From NCBI GenBank assembly GCA_003194525.1, contig NBIV01000131.1, positions 1-64,000 on the forward strand: a stretch of 64,000 bases of DNA, given 5' to 3'. Below the pieces are notes generated by a model. It was not told the origin of the DNA, made no database searches, and saw only the letters and a list, made by a program, of their open reading frames with translations. Made by a program: the position numbers and the translations under genes. Each line of letters opens with the position of its first letter. Position 1 is the first letter of the stretch. This document shows positions 1 through 16,138 of the stretch, in pieces. The stretch comes from Gracilariopsis chorda. Its lineage: Eukaryota > Rhodophyta > Florideophyceae > Gracilariales > Gracilariaceae.

Positions 1-329
1 GGCGGGTAACGGCGAATGAAAACGAGATCATCGCGCGTTTCTTCGGGGTGCCGGTCTTAGCGCTGCCGAGGTATCGGGGATGTCACCACCATGGCGGACG
101 CGGGCCTACCGCCTTGCTGGGGTTACGCCCGGGCAACGGCGAAGAGTGAGAGTGGTTTTCCTGGTATTCTTTCCCTGGCTATGCCAGTTAGTTAGTGTAG
201 TATAGAGGAGCTAGCTGCTCCCCTGAATAAACTTTCCCGTTTAGAACGGTGATTTCCAATTAGCATTTCCCGTCTTAGACGGACTTTCCTTGCTATCCTT
301 TCTCATTGCCCTCCGCTCGCGCGGCAACG
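1..329 (-). other. 3' non-coding part of element A
   Basis: No coding region lies downstream of the chromodomain. On the element's own strand a purine-rich stretch (GAGAAAGGATAGCAAGG) lies at about 275-300 and could be the polypurine tract, which would put the 3' LTR to its left, mostly outside the window. Small hairpins such as CCGTC-TTA-GACGG at about 270 continue here. Confidence 0.4.
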
Positions 330-941
330 TTACCCAACTTGGGCATTAACCAGCGTGGCTGGGGCTGCAGTTCCCGTTTGACGGTGGTATCGCACGATCT
401 GCGACCGTGGGAGGTGTTCAATTGGCTCCCACGTATCCCCACTGGGGTCGTACCCGTACCAGCGGACGCGGTATTGTAGAATACCATCCTGGTCCCAGGT
501 GTGTCCGACAAGTCGGTCTACTACGAACTCTCGTTCGTAGACCTGCCGGCCGTGCCGGGTGGTGGTTGTACTCCCTTGCGAGGTTGTCCGCGGTGCGGTA
601 TAATGTCCCTTAGCAGGGTGTTCGGCGATAACTCCGACGTTGCCGTGCGCTGTCCTAGTGCCGCTGCTCATGCGGGAAAAATATCCCTCAAGAGGGTATG
701 TGGTGTCACGGTTTCCCCGGCAAGTCATTCCCCATTGGGGTGTCGTTGTTCCCGTCTTCACGGTAGCCAGGCGAACCGCCAACCGGCGGGGGACTTGAAA
801 CTCCGCATTCGCGTTGAACTCACGAACCGCGAGTTTGCGGGAAGATGACCGCTCCTGCGGAATCGGCGTTTTCCACGATCCCCTGGGGGGTCCCGTGCGA
901 CACGGTGGTTGGATGGCAAACCGCCTCCCTGCCAGGCGCAC
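330..941 (-). CDS. element A: chromodomain-bearing C-terminal piece
   Basis: The last third carries a classic chromodomain pattern: a YEREFVVDRLVGH start, then YRVRWYGYDPSGDTWEP with aromatic-cage-like W and Y residues and a closing acidic helix. In chromoviruses such a domain follows integrase and is thought to steer insertion to marked chromatin. The unusual point is distance: the integrase C-terminal piece ends near 1716, some 775 bases upstream on this strand, whereas the two are normally contiguous. Part of a decayed retroelement. Confidence 0.75.
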   Translation of the reverse strand: MRLAGRRFAIQPPCRTGPPRGSWKTPIPQERSSSRKLAVREFNANAEFQVPRRLAVRLATVKTGTTTPQWGMTCRGNRDTTYPLEGYFSRMSSGTRTAHGNVGVIAEHPAKGHYTAPRTTSQGSTTTTRHGRQVYEREFVVDRLVGHTWDQDGILQYRVRWYGYDPSGDTWEPIEHLPRSQIVRYHRQTGTAAPATLVNAQVG

Positions 942-1715
942 GAAGCGCTCTGCACCGTACGTTCCGGCGGCGCCGTGGTGTCCCCGGCTACTGGGGGGTT
1001 GCCTAAGGCTAACTCCGGTACACCGGTATTTTGGTCAAAATTCCCCTTTGGGGGGTGCCGGGCAGGTGCCGATGACACCCTTTTCAGGGGCCTGGCCGCT
1101 AAGTGCGGTGCACCGTCTCCATGAGGAGGAGCAGCGTCCGGTACGACCGGTTTCGAGCGTGCGATGGCGCGCGTTTTTTCCCGAGTTCCTCGGTTCTTCG
1201 CCGCAGCGTTGCGGTAGTTGGCGCAAATTATTCCCCGGAACGGGGGCTTCGATTTCGTCTGCGGCGGGGAGCGTTTCCGAGCGCTGCGCGCCAGGGCCTG
1301 AAGCTTCGGATGCGGCTTGGCTACCCTTTTCCCCGATAGGGGTGTGGGTATTTCCCAGCGGCGCTGGTGTATCTGGGCGCCTCTTCTCCGCGGGCGCGGG
1401 TCTGAGCGACCTGATTGAACCGCTTCCGCGGGACTTCCGCCAATGGCGGCTTTGAGGCATCTCCCTGCTCAGGGGATTGAGGGCGATTGTCGCCATACTC
1501 CCGTATCGGGGATCCTTCCCTGACAGGGGTGTGCGGTAGCTGCGTTTCAGCTTCCCGTGTAACACGGTGTATTTGCCGCCTTTGCGGGACCTGCGCGTCT
1601 GGTTCCTGTTGCACAGCGCTGCCCGAGGACGGGGGATTAGTGTCGCGTGAGATACTCCGTGCTCCACGGTCAGTTGTCCGTATGGTACGGCGTGTTTCCC
1701 GTTGCGACGGCGATC
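942..1715 (-). other. hairpin-rich spacer between integrase and chromodomain of element A
   Basis: No recognisable domain is coded here on either strand, although several frames stay open because the DNA is GC-rich. Perfect hairpins crowd the stretch, for example CCCTG-A-CAGGG at 1518-1528, CCGTG-TAA-CACGG at 1555-1567 and CCGC-CTTT-GCGG at 1576-1587. It may be a linker expanded by hairpin-rich sequence. Confidence 0.45.
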
Positions 1716-2435
1716 TCATTCCTCGAAAACGAGTGTTCTCCTCCCCCTCCTGAGACGGAGCGGCGGGATAAGGGATAACATGCCCCGCCTGGCGGGTGTA
1801 GATTCGCGCCATAGGGGCGGGCACAGAGAGGCCCGAATTACCCGGCTGAGCCGGTGAGTCCGACAGGGTCGGTAGGTCTGAGAGTCCCCGGAGGGGTGTG
1901 GTAGCACGGTAGGCCGTCTCACCACCGATGTATCGGATGCAGAGCCATATTCCAGCGTAGGGTCCAGCGTAGCTGGTGCAGCCTCAGTCGAGGGTGGCGG
2001 AGCTAGCACGATGCGATCGCGAGATAACCGCTCATGCTCGTCACCCATTTCCACAACCACTGTGTCCGTCGTGACGGAGATAACCTTGAAAGGACCATCC
2101 GCCACAGGCGAGAGCTTATGGTGCTTCTCCCTTTCAGGGTTGTAGTACTCCTTGCGGACGAATACGAAGTCCCCGGAGTTGATCTGTTCCGGTTTGCCTC
2201 CTCGCAAGCGAGCATCGAAATTCCGTTTGTAGACGGCTTGGGCGTGGTCCATCGCCTTCCGCGCTGCGGGTACCAGCTTGGTCAGCCATGCTTTCCACTT
2301 CTGGCGGTAATCCTTAACAGAAGGGAACGCGTCCAACGTAGGTTGGGATTCCAACGCCATTGGCGGGTGTCCGTGAAAGGACCAACTCGAAAGGGGATAT
2401 TCCGGTAGTCCGGTGTACCTGCGTATTGTACGCAA
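1716..2435 (-). CDS. element A: integrase C-terminal (GPY/F-like) piece
   Basis: After the catalytic core comes the typical gypsy tail: AVYKRNFDARLRGG, GDFVFVRKEYYN, LSPVADGPFKVISV and a VVEMGD segment, matching the SH3-like GPY/F fold that binds DNA. The remainder of the piece, downstream of about residue 150, is low complexity and unrecognised. It overlaps the integrase core reading and belongs to the same broken pol region. Confidence 0.8.
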   Translation of the reverse strand: MRTIRRYTGLPEYPLSSWSFHGHPPMALESQPTLDAFPSVKDYRQKWKAWLTKLVPAARKAMDHAQAVYKRNFDARLRGGKPEQINSGDFVFVRKEYYNPEREKHHKLSPVADGPFKVISVTTDTVVVEMGDEHERLSRDRIVLAPPPSTEAAPATLDPTLEYGSASDTSVVRRPTVLPHPSGDSQTYRPCRTHRLSRVIRASLCPPLWRESTPARRGMLSLIPPLRLRRGRRTLVFEE

Positions 2436-3344
2436 AGGTCACGGCATCCGTGTAGATATCCCAAGTCTTGGGGTGGTCAGCCGTGTAAGCACGGAGAGCT
2501 GCGAGCATTGTCCGGTTGAAACGCTCGACCTGCCCATTAGACTGGGGATGATACGTGGTCGTGAAGAGATTCTTCACGTCCAGTATCCGACAGACGTCCT
2601 GGAAAAATCGCGATGCGAACTGTTTCCCGTTGTCGGAAAGTAGCTCCAAAGGAGGTCCGTAGGCAAACACCCAATGCCGCACAAAGGCGTGAGCGACCGT
2701 GTAGGCGGTAATCCTCTTTAGAGGGACTGTCCGAACTAATTTCGAGAACCTGTCCGTAATAACGAGTAGGAACTTGTTGCCTCTCCTGGTAGAGAGCAAT
2801 GGTCCGAGAATGTCAATTGCGACAAACTCGAGCGGCGCCCTGGCGGGGAATAGCTTCATCCGTTTGGAGTGCTTCCGGAGTTTGACCCGGTTCTTCGCGC
2901 ATTGCGTGCAAAACCGCACCGTAGCGTAGCAATCAACCGCCATGGCGGGCCAGTAGAAATCCCTGCGAAGGGTTAGATAAAGCTTCCTCCCACCGGAGTG
3001 TCCCCCGAGTTTCGGGTAATGCGAAAGGTGCAATATCCGCTTCTGTAGCGTGTGCGGTACCACAACTTGTGGGTAGCCTCGACGGTCCTCACGAGGTAAC
3101 CAATGTCGTTCACCCCGAAGGGGAGGTTCTCTCCGCCGTTGAGGCGTGCACGTATCCTTGTACAGAAGGGGTCCCCGAATTGTTCTCGGATCATTTCCTC
3201 GGTCTCAGCCGGTACATAATTTCCCGGTATGGGTTTCTCAGAATCATCTCGCGATGCGAGTAGGTAGTCGAAGTCAGCATCTTCGTCCCAGTTTTCTGGC
3301 TCAGCCTCGACGGCACATTCCGGATCATCCGGGTCCATTGCCAT
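2314..3344 (-). CDS. element A: integrase, zinc-binding and catalytic core
   Basis: An HHCC zinc-binding motif is visible (HLSHYPKLGGHSG, then CTQC), followed by the RNase-H-fold core with all three catalytic positions: D in VAIDILGP, D in LLSDNGKQF and E in NGQVERFNR. Integrase joins the reverse-transcribed copy to host DNA. The catalytic residues are all present although the region is read in more than one piece. Confidence 0.9.
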
Positions 3345-3780
3345 GAAACATGGGACTTCATCATCCTCCGTTGGAGTGCCTCCCCACTTGTGGGTAAACG
3401 CGACAGAGCGTCGGCTTGGGTGTTCTGCGCGCCCTTTTTATAAATGACTTGGAAGTCATATTCCGCGAGGCGGAGTCTCCAGCGCATGAGGCGTCCCGAC
3501 GGGTCGGAGATATTCATTAACCACCTCAGTGAGGAATGATCCGTGTACACGGTGAAATGGACTCCCATAAGGTAGGGGCGCAGAGTGGTCATCGCCCATA
3601 CGACGGCGAGGCACTCTTTCTCCGATACGGAGTAGTTCCGCTCATGGACATTGAGCGAGCGCGACCAATAACCAATTGGGTGTCGTTCCCCCTCGGGGTG
3701 GTTTGAAAAAGAGCACACCCGACTTGGTAGTCGCTCGAGTCCGTATCTGGGGAGTATGGCAACCCAAGTTTTGGGAGATG
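3191..3780 (-). CDS. element A: RNase H
   Basis: Shows the Ty3/gypsy RNase H signature: PIGYWSRSLN, NYSVSEKECLAVVWA, the FTVYTDHSSLRWLM block and ADALSRLP at the end. This domain removes the RNA strand during reverse transcription. It follows the reverse transcriptase directly and is part of the same broken pol gene. Confidence 0.88.
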
Positions 3781-5622
3781 TAGGATTGGTGCTGATGTGA
3801 CAGCCTCCTTCAAGGAGTTAAAGGCTTCCGATTGCTCGGGCGTAAATGTTCCCAGTTTTGGGGGGTTCCCCTTTCGCAACAACGCGTTCAGGGGCGCTGC
3901 AGTATCCGAAAAGTTCGGGATAAACAGTCGATAGACGTTGACCAGCCCCAGAAAGGAGCGCAGTTCCGTTTGAGTACGGGGTTCTTTCGCCTCAACGAGG
4001 GATTTGACTCGAGCTTTCTCGATCGCTAACCGTCCAGGACGGATAATGTGACCCAGATACTTCACAGTATCTGTGAAAAACTCGCATTTACTCAACTTGA
4101 GGGTAATTCCCGCATCGCGGAGTACGGTCAGCACGTCTCGGACGTGAGTGAGATGGTCGTCCAATGAGTTGGAGAAGATGATAATATCATCAAGGTAGAC
4201 CAGACAACTCCGCCACTTAAAGCGGTTGAGTAGGATATCTACTGCACGCTGAAAGGTGGCGGGGGCGTTGGTTAACCCAAATGGCATCCGCTTGAAGCGG
4301 TACGTTCCTGCATGGCAGGTGAATGCGGTTTTGTCGCAATCCTCCTGTCTGACAGGTACTTGCCAATATCCCCAATTGGCATCAAGGGCCGTGAACACGG
4401 TGGCGTCTCCAAGGGAGTCAATGCACTCGTCCATACGAGGGATGGGGTACGTGTCCCTAACAGTCACGGCATTGAGCCGGCGGTAGTCGACACAGAACCT
4501 CCAGGTTCCGTCAGCCTTTAAAGCCAGTACAACTGGGGATGCCCAGGGCGATTGAGCGGGCTCAATCACACCTGCGCGGAGCATCTTGTCCACCTGGGCC
4601 TGCTCCTCTTCCCGAGCTTTCGGACCTGCCCTGTAAGGGGGTTGTGCAACCGGTCGCGCACCGGGGATTAAATCGATCCGGTGTTCCGTTGCATCAATCT
4701 CGCCAAGCGAGCCATCCCACATTGTGGTGAATTCCCGTAACATAGTACGGAGTTTGTTGCGGTGCGACTCTGGCACGTGGCTGAAGTCCAGCGCTTCAAG
4801 TGCTTTTTCCGGATCAATCCGGTCATTGCTCGATGGAGCATTGTCCTGTGGAACAGGTGTGGTTCGCAATTCCGAGTTACTCGGTATGTTCGACGCGGAA
4901 GTAGCGGTTTCCTCCCCCTCCTTAGACTTGACGTCTTCGGACGGCGGGGTGAACTCCTCAGAAGAGGTGGTAACTCCGAGTACATCGGCGGTTGTCATCT
5001 TCGTTGGCAGCATTCCCATAGGATGGGGGGTTACACTCCCAATTACTTGGTGTTTGACCAGATACTGGGGGTGTTTGCCAAGGTTGGCAACCAATATCCG
5101 GAAAGGAACATCCGGGGAAATGGAGACAATTCCATTAGCCAGCGCCAGCTGGGATTTCTCGTACAACGAGGCGAGGGGTTGTATAACCCGAAGACCGTGT
5201 TGACGGGAATTTACCTGTACCCAGACTTGGGACTCAGCCGGTATAGAAACCGAGGCAGCGACGCGGAGCTTGGTGGACTCGCGGGACGCGGGCGGTGGCT
5301 CCTGCGCAGCAGGGAGCGGAACTTGTTTCCGAGAGGACCGCTTTAGCGGGCGGCGAACAATCGGAACCGACGATCCGTCGTCAAGTTCTACACGCCTGAG
5401 GCGGGGCCTGATTGCGTCGACAAATCTGTCGCAGTAATCACATCCCAGTATGACTGGTGCTGCCAGTGAACGGCAAACGATGAAGTCCAACTTCACCACA
5501 GATGTACCAAGTCTCACGACGAGGTCCACTGTGCCCACCGTTTGTAACGGATTGTTGTTCGCATCCGAAATGTCGGGGACCGCGTCAGAGCGGATACGCG
5601 ACCGCACAAGCGGGGGTAACAA
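3589..5622 (-). CDS. element A: protease remainder and reverse transcriptase
   Basis: The N-terminal 60 residues look like the second half of a retropepsin (FIVCRSLAAPVILGCDY). A variable linker follows, then a complete reverse transcriptase: WRFCVDYRRLN, TALDANWGYWQVPV, YRFKRMPFGLTNAPATFQ and the catalytic YLDD in CLVYLDDIIIFS, then the start of RNase H. Hairpins with 5-bp stems sit inside even the most conserved blocks, for example at 4307-4319 next to the MPFGL motif. Confidence 0.92.
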   Translation of the reverse strand: MLPPLVRSRIRSDAVPDISDANNNPLQTVGTVDLVVRLGTSVVKLDFIVCRSLAAPVILGCDYCDRFVDAIRPRLRRVELDDGSSVPIVRRPLKRSSRKQVPLPAAQEPPPASRESTKLRVAASVSIPAESQVWVQVNSRQHGLRVIQPLASLYEKSQLALANGIVSISPDVPFRILVANLGKHPQYLVKHQVIGSVTPHPMGMLPTKMTTADVLGVTTSSEEFTPPSEDVKSKEGEETATSASNIPSNSELRTTPVPQDNAPSSNDRIDPEKALEALDFSHVPESHRNKLRTMLREFTTMWDGSLGEIDATEHRIDLIPGARPVAQPPYRAGPKAREEEQAQVDKMLRAGVIEPAQSPWASPVVLALKADGTWRFCVDYRRLNAVTVRDTYPIPRMDECIDSLGDATVFTALDANWGYWQVPVRQEDCDKTAFTCHAGTYRFKRMPFGLTNAPATFQRAVDILLNRFKWRSCLVYLDDIIIFSNSLDDHLTHVRDVLTVLRDAGITLKLSKCEFFTDTVKYLGHIIRPGRLAIEKARVKSLVEAKEPRTQTELRSFLGLVNVYRLFIPNFSDTAAPLNALLRKGNPPKLGTFTPEQSEAFNSLKEAVTSAPILHLPKLGLPYSPDTDSSDYQVGCALFQTTPRGNDTQLVIGRARSMSMSGTTPYRRKSASPSYGR

Positions 5623-5912
5623 TATTCCACAACAAAGTTGGGGCCTGCACCTGTATCCAGGACGGTGAGAAACCTCACCATAAACTGGGGGTCAAGGCCA
5701 AGGTCGGCATAGACCTTATAATTGCGTTTGGCCAAGACCAAGACTCCACCGGGAATCCGGGGATTTTTACTCCGTATCCACGGGCGACGCAACACACCGA
5801 GGTGCGCAGAGTCCGCGTCAGCGGTGTCTTTCCTCGAGAGGACTTTCACCGGGGAGCGAGGCGAGGACGCCTCGGGCACCAACAGCCTCGTTCTTGAGGA
5901 CGCCTCTCCCAA
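5514..5912 (-). CDS. element A: aspartic protease active-site piece
   Basis: Contains VLDTGAGPNFV, the DTGA active site of a retropepsin, which cuts the polyprotein. It overlaps the downstream protease/reverse transcriptase reading in another frame and lies just after gag. Confidence 0.8.
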   Translation of the reverse strand: MGEASSRTRLLVPEASSPRSPVKVLSRKDTADADSAHLGVLRRPWIRSKNPRIPGGVLVLAKRNYKVYADLGLDPQFMVRFLTVLDTGAGPNFVVEYCYPRLCGRVSALTRSPTFRMRTTIRYKRWAQWTSS

Positions 5913-5929
5913 AGGGGAGACTCCCTCAG

Positions 5930-7714
5930 TTAGTTTTCCGCCTTCGGCGGTTGGTTGGTTTCCTCGACCACGAGTGCTTCATCCTGTTGACGGGGGTTTC
6001 TATCCGCATAAGCGGGGGTTGCAACGGATGGTTGCGTGATCTCCCGAATCGGGGTGTATGAAGCTTGCCGCGCACGCGGGGTCTGTGGTAGGGCATGGGA
6101 AAAGTCCGTTTTAGCACGGAGGTAAGAAGCCGTCGGGACGGAACTTTTCTCCTCTGGAGTGAGGGCCTCATAATTTGCCACTACCTTGGCCATATCCTTC
6201 AGTGAACAAATACACTGAGGTGAGGTATGGCCATGGGCATAGCACAGGTGGCAAATCAGAGCCAATACCGCGACACGCGGATTATTATTCCGAGTATCGG
6301 AGAAGCGAACCGCAGGGCGGGTGTCAGTCCATCCAGGCCGTTGATAAGGGGATTGACCGTTTGAAAACGGGAGTCGTTGGGGTTGAACCCGACTGTTACC
6401 ACAGTATAGAACGGGATCCTCTGTTCCCGTATCATGGGTCATCTCCGTCGTTGACGGTAAATCACTGGTGGGTATCGACACACCATCCTCCTGCACTAAA
6501 TGCACGGTATCAAATCCCTGTCCAGGGTTCCCATCCGCGGTGAGCGGGAGAGAGGAAGCTTCGCTTTCCAGCAACAACGCCTTGGCGGATTTAGACCGAT
6601 TGTTCGGAGTTCTTGCACGAAGTGCATCCCCTTCCGCTCGAGCGTGTTGGACCAGCTCGAGGTAGGTGATCCTTCGCTTGTCCTCCCGATAACGGGTAAC
6701 TAAACTCCGGATTGCCGGGTCAAGACCATCAATGAACATGGTACTGCGCTCCCCAGCGGGGTATACGTTACCACATCTGTGGAAAGCCTTGTTAAGGCGC
6801 ACCGAGTAATCGGTCTCGGTCTCTCCAGCACGCTGGCGTGTATCTCGCAAAGCGAGGATAGCCTGCTGAATAGCGGTGTTGGTGGCGTAGGAGCGCAGAA
6901 GATACTGCACAGCCTCCGGACAGCAAGTAACTCCTCCCTCGGAGGCGCGAGAAGATCCTCGGACAGAGGTGTATTGGTCCTCGGCCACTCCCCGTAAGAA
7001 ATACGGTAAAGCCAAATAGGCTTGTCCCTCATTCATACCGAGGATATCGGCCTCCGCTACAAAGCGGGATAGGAAATCCAGTACTACGACTGGGTCCTCT
7101 CCAGTAAAATACTGGTTGCGGAGCGAGAGCTGCATTCGCTTAATGCATTCTCGCACCTTTCCCGTACCACGGGGCGTACGTCCAAGTGAGGAATCTTCAA
7201 GCCGGTAGTACCGGTATGATAAAAGCTTCCGATAATCCGGGTTTGTCGGTTTCAATTCCCGGAGACCGGGGTGTCTTCTCCCCTTCTGGCGGGTTCGGAC
7301 CACACCTTCAGTGGCCGATGACCGCTTCGAGCGGGAGGAGTAGCCTCGCTTCTCGTCCTCCGAGTCGGAGTCCGAGGAGCTCGAGCTAACCGAATGGTTT
7401 CGGGGTGAGTCCGACGATGTCGAAGAATCGGAGTCCGAATATTTTCGGTGATGTTTCCGTCGGTGACGGCGTTTCTTCTTCCCAGCAAGCTGGTCGTTGT
7501 GCGATGCCTCGTTTACCGGATCACCCGGGGATGGTTTGTCCATGAGGACGAACTGCTCCAGCGTCTCCAGGCGGGCACCAATCCGATCAAATCGGGCTTC
7601 AACTCCTTCGATGAAGGCGGCGGGTTGTCCCAAACTCTCCAACACGGAGTTGACGTCAGACCGTAAAATACGGAGCTCCTCGGCGACCTCCTTTACGGGG
7701 GTTGCCGAGACCAC
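5930..7714 (-). CDS. element A: gag
   Basis: A long open reading of 594 codons. The N-terminus is coiled-coil-like with heptad Leu/Val; residues about 70-170 are rich in Ser, Lys and Arg; the retrotransposon gag core follows (VLDFLSRFVAEADI, ETETDYSVRLNKAFHRCG). Near residue 510 is one CCHC zinc knuckle (CHLCYAHGHTSPQC, spacing C-x2-C-x4-H-x4-C), which binds RNA. This is the best-preserved reading of the element. Confidence 0.85.
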   Translation of the reverse strand: MVSATPVKEVAEELRILRSDVNSVLESLGQPAAFIEGVEARFDRIGARLETLEQFVLMDKPSPGDPVNEASHNDQLAGKKKRRHRRKHHRKYSDSDSSTSSDSPRNHSVSSSSSDSDSEDEKRGYSSRSKRSSATEGVVRTRQKGRRHPGLRELKPTNPDYRKLLSYRYYRLEDSSLGRTPRGTGKVRECIKRMQLSLRNQYFTGEDPVVVLDFLSRFVAEADILGMNEGQAYLALPYFLRGVAEDQYTSVRGSSRASEGGVTCCPEAVQYLLRSYATNTAIQQAILALRDTRQRAGETETDYSVRLNKAFHRCGNVYPAGERSTMFIDGLDPAIRSLVTRYREDKRRITYLELVQHARAEGDALRARTPNNRSKSAKALLLESEASSLPLTADGNPGQGFDTVHLVQEDGVSIPTSDLPSTTEMTHDTGTEDPVLYCGNSRVQPQRLPFSNGQSPYQRPGWTDTRPAVRFSDTRNNNPRVAVLALICHLCYAHGHTSPQCICSLKDMAKVVANYEALTPEEKSSVPTASYLRAKTDFSHALPQTPRARQASYTPIREITQPSVATPAYADRNPRQQDEALVVEETNQPPKAEN

Positions 7715-7737
7715 CTCTTGGAGGGATTTTAGTTCCC

Positions 7738-8103
7738 CTACAAGGGTGTCATGGGCGGTCCACAGAGCGCGGACCTGGGATTCCAGGGAAGTTCCCTGGG
7801 GGGTGTTATCACCCGTTCCACGGGGCTTGAAGCCGCGACAGCGGGAGCAGGCCGGGGTGCCTGGGGCACTGCGGCAACAGCCGGAGTCGATGCTGCATTC
7901 CCCTGCGGGGGTGATAACGAGGGCAAAAGGAGGTTCCGGGGTTCCCGGTCGGGGGTATCATTCCGCGATGAAGCGGCGCCAGCACGGCTGGAACTTGTCC
8001 GTATAGGGATACGGGGTACGAACCGAACTTCGGAAGTGTCCGCGTTGTCGCGGGAGCGACTACGCGTAACCACTGGCTCCGCGTCGGAGGGATTTCTCGA
8101 CAT
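7738..8103 (-). CDS. element A: short Pro/Ala/Arg-rich reading ahead of gag
   Basis: 121 codons rich in Arg, Ser, Pro and Ala, with no domain I recognise. It lies just upstream of gag on the same strand, so it may be the gag N-terminus or a leader-region open frame. Confidence 0.4.
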   Translation of the reverse strand: MSRNPSDAEPVVTRSRSRDNADTSEVRFVPRIPIRTSSSRAGAASSRNDTPDREPRNLLLPSLSPPQGNAASTPAVAAVPQAPRPAPAVAASSPVERVITPPRELPWNPRSALCGPPMTPL

Positions 8104-9000
8104 GAGAAAATACCGTTACGACGGGAAACGATCACGGAACTTCCGGTGAATGAAAACAAACCTCGTAAGAGGGAAAGCAAAAACCGATTCTAGGTCGGGA
8201 GACCACTTTGTGGTGCAATGCCCCAAAGGGGAAAAACACCGAAAGACGTCCGGGATCTTCCTCTCACGAGGTGAACCCAGTTGGGTAGAGCCCTCCCAGA
8301 GGTGTCACGGCGAAGCCGGTTTGTAAGACCAGGGACACCTGTCGCGACTCGCGCAGGGAGGTGAAGGCGAAGAATCGGTATCCGCGTGAGCGGGGCGTGA
8401 TCCTCAGTAGAGGTATGTTTCCACGTAAGTGGGGGTGTGTGAGCGGATGCGCACACGAGGGCCGCGGATAGCGGGAGGTGCTACCCTAAAAAGGGGAAAG
8501 AGGAAGGACGAGTGGGTCGCGAGAGCGACGAGTAGATACGGCGATGCCGGTGGACGGGACTCCCTATACAGGGCGGAACACCAATATGATTGGAACAATT
8601 AGTACTCCCAATGATGGGTCTCCTTTAGATGTGCAAGGGGGGTGAACTTCCGTACACTGCGGTGCTTCCCTCCAAGGAGGAGTTGAGAACACGCGGAGGC
8701 GGTAAAGCTCAGAGCCAATTCCCCAGGTTGGGGTCCCTTGTTGGGGAAGGTTTACTGGTGCGACGGCAGTGCGCCGTCGCACTAAGTACTAGCTTCCCAG
8801 AAATGGGTGTGAAAATAATAAATAAAATTAACTAAAATACTCCACATTCCGTGGCAACATCCACTACTGTGGCCAACCGCCAATTGACCCAAAACCGTGT
8901 CCCACGTGTCCATACCCACCGTAGTGGGGCGTAGTTCATATACACACTACACAACCGATAATATCGGGAAAACAATCAAGTACCAAGAATCCCTCCCTGA
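8104..9000 (-). other. 5' non-coding region of element A, probably including the 5' LTR
   Basis: No coding potential. The hairpin texture continues (CCCC-AAA-GGGG near 8225, CCCAC-CGTA-GTGGG near 8925) and weakens after about 9000. The 5' LTR should lie here, but without the partner LTR its edges cannot be set. Confidence 0.45.
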
Positions 9001-9100
9001 GGGCGTTGCACTTCAACTATTGTCAGTACATTAGACAATAGTAAAAATAGAAGCGTATCCTATTCAAACAACAAAATAAATAATGTGTAGTACAACCTAC

Positions 9101-9440
9101 GTATACCCTTCTAACGAAAATAGTTGTAATCTATGTAGTGCATAATTAGACTGCCCAGTACTAAAAACTTATACCATTCTAACAAGAATAGGTATAGTTT
9201 ACGTAATGCATACGTAGGCGACATAGTACTGTAGACGTATACACTTCTCACAAAAATAATTTTAATCTATGTAGTGCATACGTAGGTCACACAGTTTTAC
9301 AAACGTAGAATCCTTTAACGAGAATGGGAATTAACTATACGGTGCATACGTAGGTAAATTCATACTCCATATAAATTGACGTCTGAAACCCATACTGAAT
9401 AAGAATGCAATGCATATGTAATTAGTAAAGTACTGCGTAT
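9101..9440. repeat. 68-bp tandem repeat, five diverged units
   Basis: Units start at 9101, 9169, 9237, 9305 and 9373, each exactly 68 bp. The best-kept part is a core like TATGTAGTGCATACGTAGG in the middle of the unit. Units differ by roughly a quarter to a third of positions, so the array is old, but the exact 68-bp register is kept. It is AT-rich and abuts the hairpin-rich element on the left and the Helitron on the right. Confidence 0.8.
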
Positions 9441-16041: not shown

Positions 16042-16125
16042 TTCCCGTTGGTCTAGTGGTTACAGTGCTGCGAAGGATGTCCCGCTTTCACCGGGAAGAC
16101 CGCGGGTTCAAACCCCGCACGGGAA
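16042..16125 (+). tRNA. tRNA-Glu (UUC) with a 12-nt insertion in the D-loop
   Basis: Acceptor arms TTCCCGT (16042-16048) and ACGGGAA (16119-16125) pair over 7 bp. The anticodon stem TCCCG/CGGGA encloses the loop CTTTCAC with anticodon TTC at 16087-16089. The T-stem GCGGG/CCCGC encloses TTCAAAC. The D-arm starts GTCTAGTGGTTA like other eukaryotic tRNA-Glu genes, but 12 extra bases (CAGTGCTGCGAA, 16063-16074, one placement among equivalents) precede GGAT. Without them the gene is a standard 72-nt tRNA-Glu; with them the D-loop would be 20 nt. The A box (16049-16059) and B box (16105-16115) are intact. The insert most likely is an ectopic intron; a pseudogene is the alternative, though every stem is perfect. 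Confidence 0.9.
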
Positions 16126-16138
16126 GACTAGCTATTCG

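What the first reader, a model, noticed from the sequence alone, without database searches (positions are those of the whole stretch)
1..8960. A gypsy retrotransposon studded throughout with perfect mini-hairpins
Element A carries a perfect short stem-loop about every 25-50 bases, in coding and non-coding parts alike. In 4288-4884 alone I read CCGCT-TGA-AGCGG (4288), CCTGC-ATG-GCAGG (4307), CCTGT-CTG-ACAGG (4344), CCGTG-AA-CACGG (4389), CTCGC-CAA-GCGAG (4699), CCACA-T-TGTGG (4717), CCGGAT-CA-ATCCGG (4809), TGCTC-GATG-GAGCA (4827), CCTGT-GGA-ACAGG (4845) and CCGAG-TTA-CTCGG (4872). A 5-bp stem with one fixed 3-nt loop is expected about 0.6 times in such a stretch; six or more occur, most with outer CC...GG pairs. 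They sit inside conserved RT and integrase codons, so the protein is kept while the nucleotides pair. The other retroelements in the window do not show this. Possible causes: selection on the RNA (packaging, translation control, escape from silencing), spread of tiny palindromic inserts, or a templated mutation process that makes inverted repeats.
Basis: partly seen in the sequence, partly recalled or inferred. Interest (0 to 1): 0.88.

Follow-up and report, generated by a model that had tools for sequence, protein, structure and literature searches.

The report
Retrotransposon written in tiny hairpins
A jumping gene of what looks like a red alga carries a tiny, precisely built hairpin about every 50 letters, inside its genes as well as outside them, and the pairing seems to be kept by selection while copies multiply; what reads these hairpins is not known.

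Summary
Element A is a Ty3/Gypsy element (window 1-9015, coding strand minus, cut by the contig start) of a probable red alga. It holds 170 perfect hairpins of one kind: 5'-CC, two or three more Watson-Crick pairs, a free loop of 3-4 bases, GG-3'. That is 18.9/kb against 0.44/kb in the other 55 kb, and 33 vs 4.0 (PR-RT) and 32 vs 2.7 (gag) against synonymous shuffles. The rules are strict: almost no G.U pairs, helices that end at the CC/GG foot, few longer stems, A-rich flanks on the coding strand. Two related Gypsy families show it; the other retroelements tested in the window do not. Between two diverged family members, CC stems change less than loops and surroundings, with three paired substitutions. 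In five older copies, private mutations hit stems as often as other sites. The missing G.U pairs speak against selection for RNA stability alone and leave an ssDNA stage or a templated process open.

The parts
1..9015 (-). Element A, Ty3/Gypsy LTR retrotransposon, truncated by the contig start; carries 170 CC-foot mini-hairpins (18.9/kb)
   Evidence: LTR-LTR spacing of about 10.73 kb in full copies
8209..9015 (-). 5' LTR (807 bp); 17 CC-foot hairpins (21.1/kb)
   Evidence: 99.4% match to the 3' LTR of another copy, both ending at the same base
7715..8208 (-). Leader between LTR and gag frame; 12 CC-foot hairpins (24.3/kb)
5930..7714 (-). gag-like open frame (594 aa) with a CCHC-type knuckle (read by eye) and a basic Ser/Arg-rich stretch; 32 CC-foot hairpins vs 2.7 in synonymous shuffles
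   Evidence: (no Pfam family over its cut-off)
3589..5622 (-). Protease/RT/RNase H frame (677 aa); 33 CC-foot hairpins vs 4.0 in synonymous shuffles
2314..3063 (-). Integrase frame; 8 CC-foot hairpins vs 1.3 in synonymous shuffles. The pol frame between this and the RT frame is interrupted by stops in this copy
1..1700 (-). 3' part downstream of the integrase core; 41 CC-foot hairpins (24.1/kb); about 90% identical to L070 over 5-1558, with conserved stems
4288..4300 (-). Hairpin CCGCTTCAAGCGG (Y-R-F-K-R-M of RT); B has CCGATTCAATCGG, C has TCGCTTTAAGCGA: two paired changes at one site
3620..3632 (-). Hairpin CTCCGTATCGGAG (Y-S-V-S-E conserved): one stem pair is C-G in A, T-A in B, G-C in C, between third positions of two serine codons
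3462..3474 (-). Hairpin TCCGCCTCGCGGA; C has TCCGACTCTCGGA (paired change C-G to A-T)
4288..4884 (-).

Best explanation
Element A and its relatives B and C carry a second code on top of their protein code: a mini-hairpin of fixed build, about one per 50 nt. Each has a 5'-CC/GG-3' foot, 4-5 strict Watson-Crick pairs in all, a loop of 3-4 free bases and unpaired, mostly A-rich flanks on the coding strand. SHOWN by sequence: the motif, its density, its boundaries, and that CC stems change less than loops and surroundings between two diverged family members, with paired substitutions. INFERRED: that selection acts on the single-stranded coding strand, most likely the genomic RNA/mRNA. INFERRED with less confidence: that the hairpins are many weak binding sites for an RNA-binding protein of the element itself (Gag has a CCHC knuckle and a basic Ser/Arg-rich stretch), used to recognise, compact or package the element's own RNA. 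Each family has its own foot (CC in A and B, often TCC in C), as expected if protein and sites coevolve. After insertion a copy is no longer under this selection and its hairpins decay.
For: Motif and density: 170 CC-foot hairpins vs 24 in the other 54,985 bases; synonymous shuffles 33 vs 4.0, 32 vs 2.7, 8 vs 1.3, none of 1000 shuffles reaching the observed count in each frame. Geometry: 5 bp + 3-nt loop 54 vs 1.2; 4 bp + 4-nt loop 67 vs 3.7; GG-foot hairpins of the same builds 1 vs 0.8 and 4 vs 3.2. Helix ends at the foot: a further Watson-Crick pair in 7 of 170 vs 40 by permutation, 0 of 55 vs 10.9 in L070, 1 of 37 vs 9.9 in B. Single-strand asymmetry: A 303 vs T 178 in the flanks on the coding strand, p = 1.3e-8, offsets chosen after seeing the profile. 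Constraint between window copy and L070: 3' part CC stems 9/329 and 17/325 changed vs outside 91/719 and 78/716; INT 32/174 and 27/164 vs 226/861 and 221/842; CC loops change like or more than outside; non-CC stems like outside in three of four comparisons. Identical stems 26 of 34 and 30 of 35 vs 0.54 for random windows; INT 8 of 18 and 10 of 18 vs 0.13-0.14. Three hairpins differ by paired changes in that comparison; more between families, including a three-way C-G/T-A/G-C pair with unchanged amino acids. Five older copies: private changes 62/3705 in CC stems vs 202/16010 outside. Three families show the trait. Hairpin codons lie at less conserved residues (0.54 vs 0.65) and do not depart more from the RT consensus (1/36 vs 23/212, p = 0.22), as expected if hairpins are fitted around the protein.
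Against: G.U pairs are not enriched even at equal RNA free energy (A, coding strand: 4-bp 4 vs 3.5 and 7 vs 6.5; 5-bp 1 vs 1.8, 3 vs 1.7, 3 vs 1.1; Watson-Crick 12.8x to 67x where at least 0.3 was expected), which an RNA-stability model does not predict; B has a small G.U excess at 5 bp (4 vs 1.4 over three energy bins). On the other strand, hairpins with G.U (A.C on the coding strand) are mildly in excess. RNA folding z-scores are about equal on both strands. Between families most hairpins turn over: stem columns change about as often as others in A-B and A-C (third positions 0.56-0.60 vs 0.61). In C the CC hairpins do not end at the foot (6 of 22 vs 5.7). The leader, where packaging signals usually lie, is not clearly richer (24.3/kb vs 18.9/kb overall). 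No protein, expression or binding evidence links Gag to the hairpins. The stem-conservation test rests on one pair of copies; the five older copies are not all dead (in-frame stop in 2 of 5; private changes by codon position 47:26:52).
Confidence: 0.4

Rival explanations
1. The hairpins act in DNA: they fold in a single-stranded DNA intermediate (cDNA or displaced plus strand) and serve reverse transcription, protection of the strand or integration. G.T is a true mismatch in DNA, so only Watson-Crick stems work.
For: No G.U enrichment at equal RNA energy, and enrichment of Watson-Crick 4-bp stems is the same in two RNA energy bins (12.8x and 12.8x); loops of 3-4 nt are usual for DNA hairpins (recalled).
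Against: A-rich flanks on the coding strand point to the plus strand, whereas the long single-stranded cDNA intermediate is the minus strand (established knowledge). DNA stability alone does not explain CC...GG over GG...CC.
Confidence: 0.2
2. The hairpins help the element's RNA in the host cell without an element-encoded reader: resistance to silencing or decay, control of translation or export, or binding by a host protein that reads a CC/GG foot.
For: Present in coding and non-coding parts alike; maintained between diverged family members; very local structure with few longer stems (6-bp with loop 3-4: 2 observed, 0.3 expected, vs 67 five-bp).
Against: The Gypsy and Copia regions tested in the same window lack it, so the host does not demand it of all retroelements; family-specific feet fit a family-specific reader better.
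Confidence: 0.2
3. A templated mutation process: during replication of these families the nascent strand folds back, copies itself for a few bases and returns, writing perfect inverted repeats; stems look conserved because mismatches are copied away.
For: Strict Watson-Crick pairing and no excess of internal one-mismatch stems of any kind (A: G.U 47 vs 49.6, A.C 54 vs 60.9, other 233 vs 223.6 at the three inner positions); paired changes; loops as short as sterically possible.
Against: Foot fixed as CC/GG with a forbidden next pair and A rather than T after GG is hard to get from copying; hairpins lie at tolerant residues without raising departures from the RT consensus; synonymous three-way compensation; one-mismatch stems are not depleted as conversion would predict.
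Confidence: 0.15
4. No special feature: composition, codon use or protein sequence makes hairpins by chance.
For: The element is GC-rich (0.54-0.63 per kb) relative to most of the window.
Against: Composition expectation 3.6-4.8/kb, dinucleotide shuffles and synonymous shuffles all fall far short; L074, a distant relative, sits at chance (3.3/kb vs 3.6).
Confidence: 0.01

Closest known systems
Dispersed RNA packaging signals of ssRNA viruses and hepatitis B virus (MS2, STNV, parechovirus; papers seen as search listing only)
   Same: Many short degenerate stem-loops spread through coding sequence of one genome, proposed to be read by a multimeric capsid-type protein.
   Different: There the HBV listing places the shared recognition motif in the loop; here the loop is free and the foot of the stem is fixed. 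Density is far higher, G.U is missing, and no binding protein is shown. The genome is an LTR retrotransposon.
Genome-scale ordered RNA structure (GORS) of RNA viruses (recalled; search listed 5 papers with the term and 'retrotransposon', none read)
   Same: Structure spread over the whole genome, above sequence-order-shuffled controls.
   Different: GORS is a folding-energy trend without a motif; here the excess is a discrete motif and enrichment does not follow RNA energy. Folding z-scores here are modest (mean -0.82 for 60-nt windows).
Ty3 genomic RNA structure (PMC11381356; abstract, list of sections and section 29 read)
   Same: Same superfamily; a mosaic of structured and dynamic regions, with palindromes and cis elements at the 5' end.
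   Different: The parts read describe no repeated hairpin motif; Ty3 gRNA is A-rich (about 36%), element A is GC-rich.
lambda boxB-type mini-hairpins read by arginine-rich peptides (recalled)
   Same: A 5-bp mini-hairpin of about 15 nt recognised by a short basic peptide.
   Different: boxB has a fixed loop and few copies; here loops vary and there are 170 copies.

Membership tests
Ty3/Gypsy LTR retrotransposon (element A) | RT, RNase H and integrase domains in the order RT-RH-INT | tested here: met
   RVT_1 and RT_RNaseH_2 in 3592-5622; Integrase_H2C2 and rve in 2317-3063 downstream on the same strand
Ty3/Gypsy LTR retrotransposon (element A) | Long terminal repeats | tested here: met
   807-bp repeat, paired copies about 10.73 kb apart in other contigs; the window holds one LTR only
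Ty3/Gypsy LTR retrotransposon (element A) | Intact in this copy | tested here: not met
   Stops between RT and integrase frames; truncated at contig start. Other copies have long open frames (up to 1887 codons in the list)
Dispersed packaging signals | Multiple stem-loops across the genome, above chance | tested here: met
Dispersed packaging signals | Common recognition motif in the loop | tested here: not met
   Loop letters are mixed in all four builds; the common motif is the stem foot
Dispersed packaging signals | Contact with capsid protein and effect on assembly | not testable with these tools
   no binding or assembly data
Genome-scale ordered RNA structure | Lower folding energy than sequence-order-shuffled controls along the genome | tested here: met
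   A, coding strand: mean z -0.56, -0.82, -1.22 for 30, 60, 120 nt; control Gypsy -0.01, -0.06, 0.10
Genome-scale ordered RNA structure | Pairing that follows RNA rules including G.U | tested here: not met
   G.U near chance in A at equal RNA energy; small excess in B at 5 bp (4 vs 1.4)
Mobile palindromic inserts (GC clusters, double-hairpin elements) | Hairpins present as insertions absent from empty homologous sites | tested here: not met
   At shared hairpin sites between families the aligned copies have equal length; among the hairpins listed in the integrase part, sites without the hairpin mostly align without gaps

The most novel reading that the evidence does not exclude
A retrotransposon lineage has evolved a genome-wide, sequence-degenerate hairpin code, a repeated mini-hairpin with a fixed CC/GG foot, fixed length, strict Watson-Crick stem and free loop, superimposed on all its genes and kept by selection during replication. 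It would be read by a dedicated partner as a self versus non-self mark of the element's own nucleic acid, a kind of system not described so far.
Probability: 0.35. Interest if true: 0.93.

Novelty: new variant of a known kind. Interest (0 to 1): 0.85.

Why it matters
Structure overlaid on coding sequence is usually subtle and needs large alignments to detect. Here one 9-kb element shows a motif 43 times denser than the surrounding 55 kb, with rules sharp enough to test. If a Gag-type protein reads it, it would be a clear case of an LTR retrotransposon marking its whole RNA for self-recognition. Either way the many copies in one genome, of different ages and families, make the evolution of such a code measurable.

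Tried and rejected
Chance and composition: rejected.

Palindromic inserts: not supported, see membership test.

Simple selection for RNA stability: not supported, because enrichment does not follow RNA energy and G.U is near chance.

Regular spacing: rejected (CV 0.97).

Higher density in the leader: it appeared for stems of 5 bp or more (32.5/kb) but not clearly for the strict class (24.3/kb), so I do not use it.

A first test of stem conservation (subfamilies A1 vs A2) looked positive but is confounded: A1 and A2 are identical over the first 2.1 kb of the shared frame and 22-26% apart in the integrase part. I replaced it (window copy vs L070), where the compared regions are evenly diverged.

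Known RNA families: no Rfam match up to E = 1 in 1-9100. Relatives elsewhere: one scan of IMG/VR with the single protein gave none, one with an alignment gave one distant locus, L074, at chance density. Gag has no match among solved structures up to E = 1.

Prior description: eight searches of the open PMC library showed no title or abstract start describing such a hairpin code; only PMC11381356 was opened, and only in part.

Rows dropped before counts: 12 same-centre duplicates (without dropping, 19 of 182 have a further pair, against about 44 by my hand calculation from its margins); columns with gaps in the substitution counts; 11 of the 30 A-family loci were aligned.
Full report
WHAT WAS CLAIMED AND WHETHER IT IS THERE. 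The ten quoted hairpins are all present at the quoted places. In window 1-9015 there are 184 stems of 5 bp or more with loops of 1-5 nt against 41.4 in dinucleotide shuffles; the remaining 54,985 bases have 245 against 242.6. Synonymous shuffles that keep the protein and the codon counts give 9.9, 9.8 and 3.3 where 49, 40 and 10 are observed in the PR-RT, gag and integrase frames.

THE ELEMENT. Coding strand is the minus strand. Gag-like frame 5930-7714, RT/RNase H frame 3589-5622, integrase frame 2314-3063, 5' LTR 8209-9015. In other contigs the LTR probe occurs in pairs about 10.73 kb apart (for example C46, C23, C66, C161, C198). The window copy is truncated by the contig start and its pol frame is interrupted. 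The host is probably a red alga: the best RT and Gag relatives are Agarophyton chilense proteins (67% over 83% of the query; 51% over 99%, where 5 of 46 hits bear that name), and light-harvesting genes are present (15 matches); RuBisCO large subunit was not found, so plastid DNA is probably not in the assembly. The species was not established.

THE MOTIF. About two thirds of the excess of stems of 5 bp or more is in hairpins that begin CC and end GG (100 vs 4.8); the other outer classes together are 84 vs about 33. The preferred builds with a CC foot are 5 bp + 3-nt loop (54 vs 1.2), 4 bp + 4-nt loop (67 vs 3.7), 4 bp + 3-nt loop (29 vs 3.3, and 15 vs 1.6 with a further pair) and 5 bp + 4-nt loop (13 vs 1.0). 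Stems of 3 bp are at or up to twice chance where they end at the foot. Stems of 6 bp with loops of 3-4 nt number 2 against 0.3, too few to judge, but fewer than the about 9 expected if they were enriched like 5-bp stems (my estimate). The same builds with a GG foot are close to chance. Loops show no fixed letters. The helix ends at the foot: a further Watson-Crick pair occurs in 7 of 170 against 40 by permutation, and in 0 of 55 against 10.9 in L070. The bases just outside are A-rich on both sides of the coding strand (A 303, T 178; offsets chosen after seeing the profile), which a double-stranded palindrome would not show.

WATSON-CRICK ONLY. With CC...GG fixed and spans of 12-14, all-Watson-Crick inner triplets occur 89 times against 3.3, those with one G.U at the outer two inner positions 4 against 3.0, with one A.C 6 against 3.6, with another mismatch 19 against 13.2 (summed by hand). 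At equal RNA free energy, G.U hairpins in A are near chance while Watson-Crick ones are enriched 12.8-fold or more in the well-populated bins; B has a small G.U excess at 5 bp (4 vs 1.4); on the opposite strand G.U (A.C on the coding strand) is mildly in excess in A. I cannot explain the G.U ban by RNA stability; a protein that reads the stem, a DNA stage, or a copying process could.

DISTRIBUTION. The strict class (CC foot, 4-5 bp, loop 3-4): 170 in 1-9015 (18.9/kb), 24 in the rest (0.44/kb); LTR 21.1/kb, leader 24.3/kb, 3' part 24.1/kb; frames 33, 32, 8 against 4.0, 2.7, 1.3 in 1000 synonymous shuffles each, maxima 11, 9, 5. The 38 A-family loci (some of the same copies) have 19.3-23.4 stems per kb; 7 loci of family B 10.9-11.8 and 23 loci of family C 10.5-14.4, with about 4/kb expected. 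Representatives of B and C exceed shuffles 2.7- and 3.1-fold and synonymous shuffles (40 vs 17.9, max 32; 46 vs 15.9, max 28). Foot enrichment: CC 19 vs 1.2 in B; TCC 6 vs 0.3 and CC 8 vs 1.1 in C. In C the CC hairpins do not stop at the foot (6 of 22 vs 5.7), TCC ones perhaps (1 of 12 vs 2.9, p = 0.17). The window's other Gypsy region, the Copia region and the distant IMG/VR relative L074 are at or near chance. One of two stretches fetched as random background (L070) proved to be the 3' half of an A-family copy and is hairpin-rich; the other (L069) has 2.7/kb.

IS IT KEPT? L070 and the window copy differ by about 10% in the 3' part and 25% in the integrase part. CC stems changed at 9 of 329 and 17 of 325 sites (hairpins defined in one copy or the other) against 91 of 719 and 78 of 716 outside; in the integrase part 32 of 174 and 27 of 164 against 226 of 861 and 221 of 842. 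Restricted to G and C sites: 5/277 and 12/277 vs 44/428 and 39/429; 20/134 and 23/130 vs 122/461 and 100/446. Loops changed as often as or more often than outside. Stems without a CC foot changed 12/113, 4/111, 33/141, 34/146, like outside except the second. Whole stems identical: 26 of 34, 30 of 35, 8 of 18, 10 of 18, against 0.54, 0.54, 0.13, 0.14 for random windows; three hairpins differ by paired changes. This is one pair of copies. That most of their divergence arose while the lineages were replicating is an inference from the 98-99% identity within subfamilies. In five more diverged copies, private changes fall on CC stems at 62 of 3705 and outside at 202 of 16010, so nothing protects stems there. 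Two of these five have an in-frame stop in the PR-RT frame, and private changes by codon position are 47:26:52, so they are largely but not fully relaxed.

BETWEEN FAMILIES (64-66% nucleotide identity) hairpins mostly turn over: stem columns change nearly as often as others in A-B and A-C, somewhat less when defined in B or C. Yet hairpins with the same centre are shared 10, 9 and 5 times against 0.39, 0.54 and 0.25 by shifting; some are identical because the codons are. Double changes within stem pairs give Watson-Crick pairs 21 of 48 (A2 to B), 16 of 46 (A2 to C), 13 of 26 (C to A2) against 27%, 28% and 18% for slid partners. The best examples: YSVSE, TCC GTA TCG / TCT GTG TCA / TCG GTG TCC; and CCGCTTCAAGCGG / CCGATTCAATCGG / TCGCTTTAAGCGA.

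INTERPRETATION. Shown: a discrete, dense, rule-bound hairpin motif, conserved in the stems of one diverged pair of copies and unprotected in older copies. Inferred: selection on a single-stranded coding-strand molecule, most simply the genomic RNA. Hairpin codons lie at less conserved residues (0.54 vs 0.65) and do not raise departures from the RT consensus (1 of 36 vs 23 of 212, p = 0.22), as expected if hairpins are fitted around the protein. A Gag-type protein is my first choice because the trait belongs to particular element families, the foot differs between families, and Gag has a CCHC knuckle and a basic Ser/Arg-rich stretch (read by eye; Pfam gives no family over its cut-off). Rivals are a DNA stage, host-side effects on the RNA, and a templated process; see those fields.

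RELATION TO KNOWN SYSTEMS. It works most like dispersed packaging signals, but a defining feature, the common loop motif, is not met, so I do not file it there. It meets the folding-energy test of genome-scale ordered structure but not its pairing rules. Eight literature searches showed no description of it in titles or abstract starts.

LIMITS.

Noticed in passing
window 9088-9331: Three copies of a 68-nt-spaced tandem repeat (69-72% alike) lie just outside the element's end at 9015.
   Followed up: no
L020 vs L025 (A-family copies): Mosaic subfamilies: identical over the first 2.1 kb of the aligned frame, 22-26% different in the integrase part, as if by recombination or template switching.
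   Followed up: partly
G000 contigs C573, C819, C883, C642 and others: Another Gypsy family stands in head-to-tail arrays with a period of about 5.68 kb.
   Followed up: no
G000 contigs C190, C529, C920, C938: A Gypsy family with one TAG inside a long frame (2145 codons in two of the copies listed) in five listed matches, perhaps a recoded stop.
   Followed up: no
L015 (matches window 6682 and 8209 side by side): An A-family copy with an internal deletion joining pol-gag and LTR parts.
   Followed up: no
window 16042-16126, + strand: tRNA-like hit with an odd four-base anticodon call.
   Followed up: no
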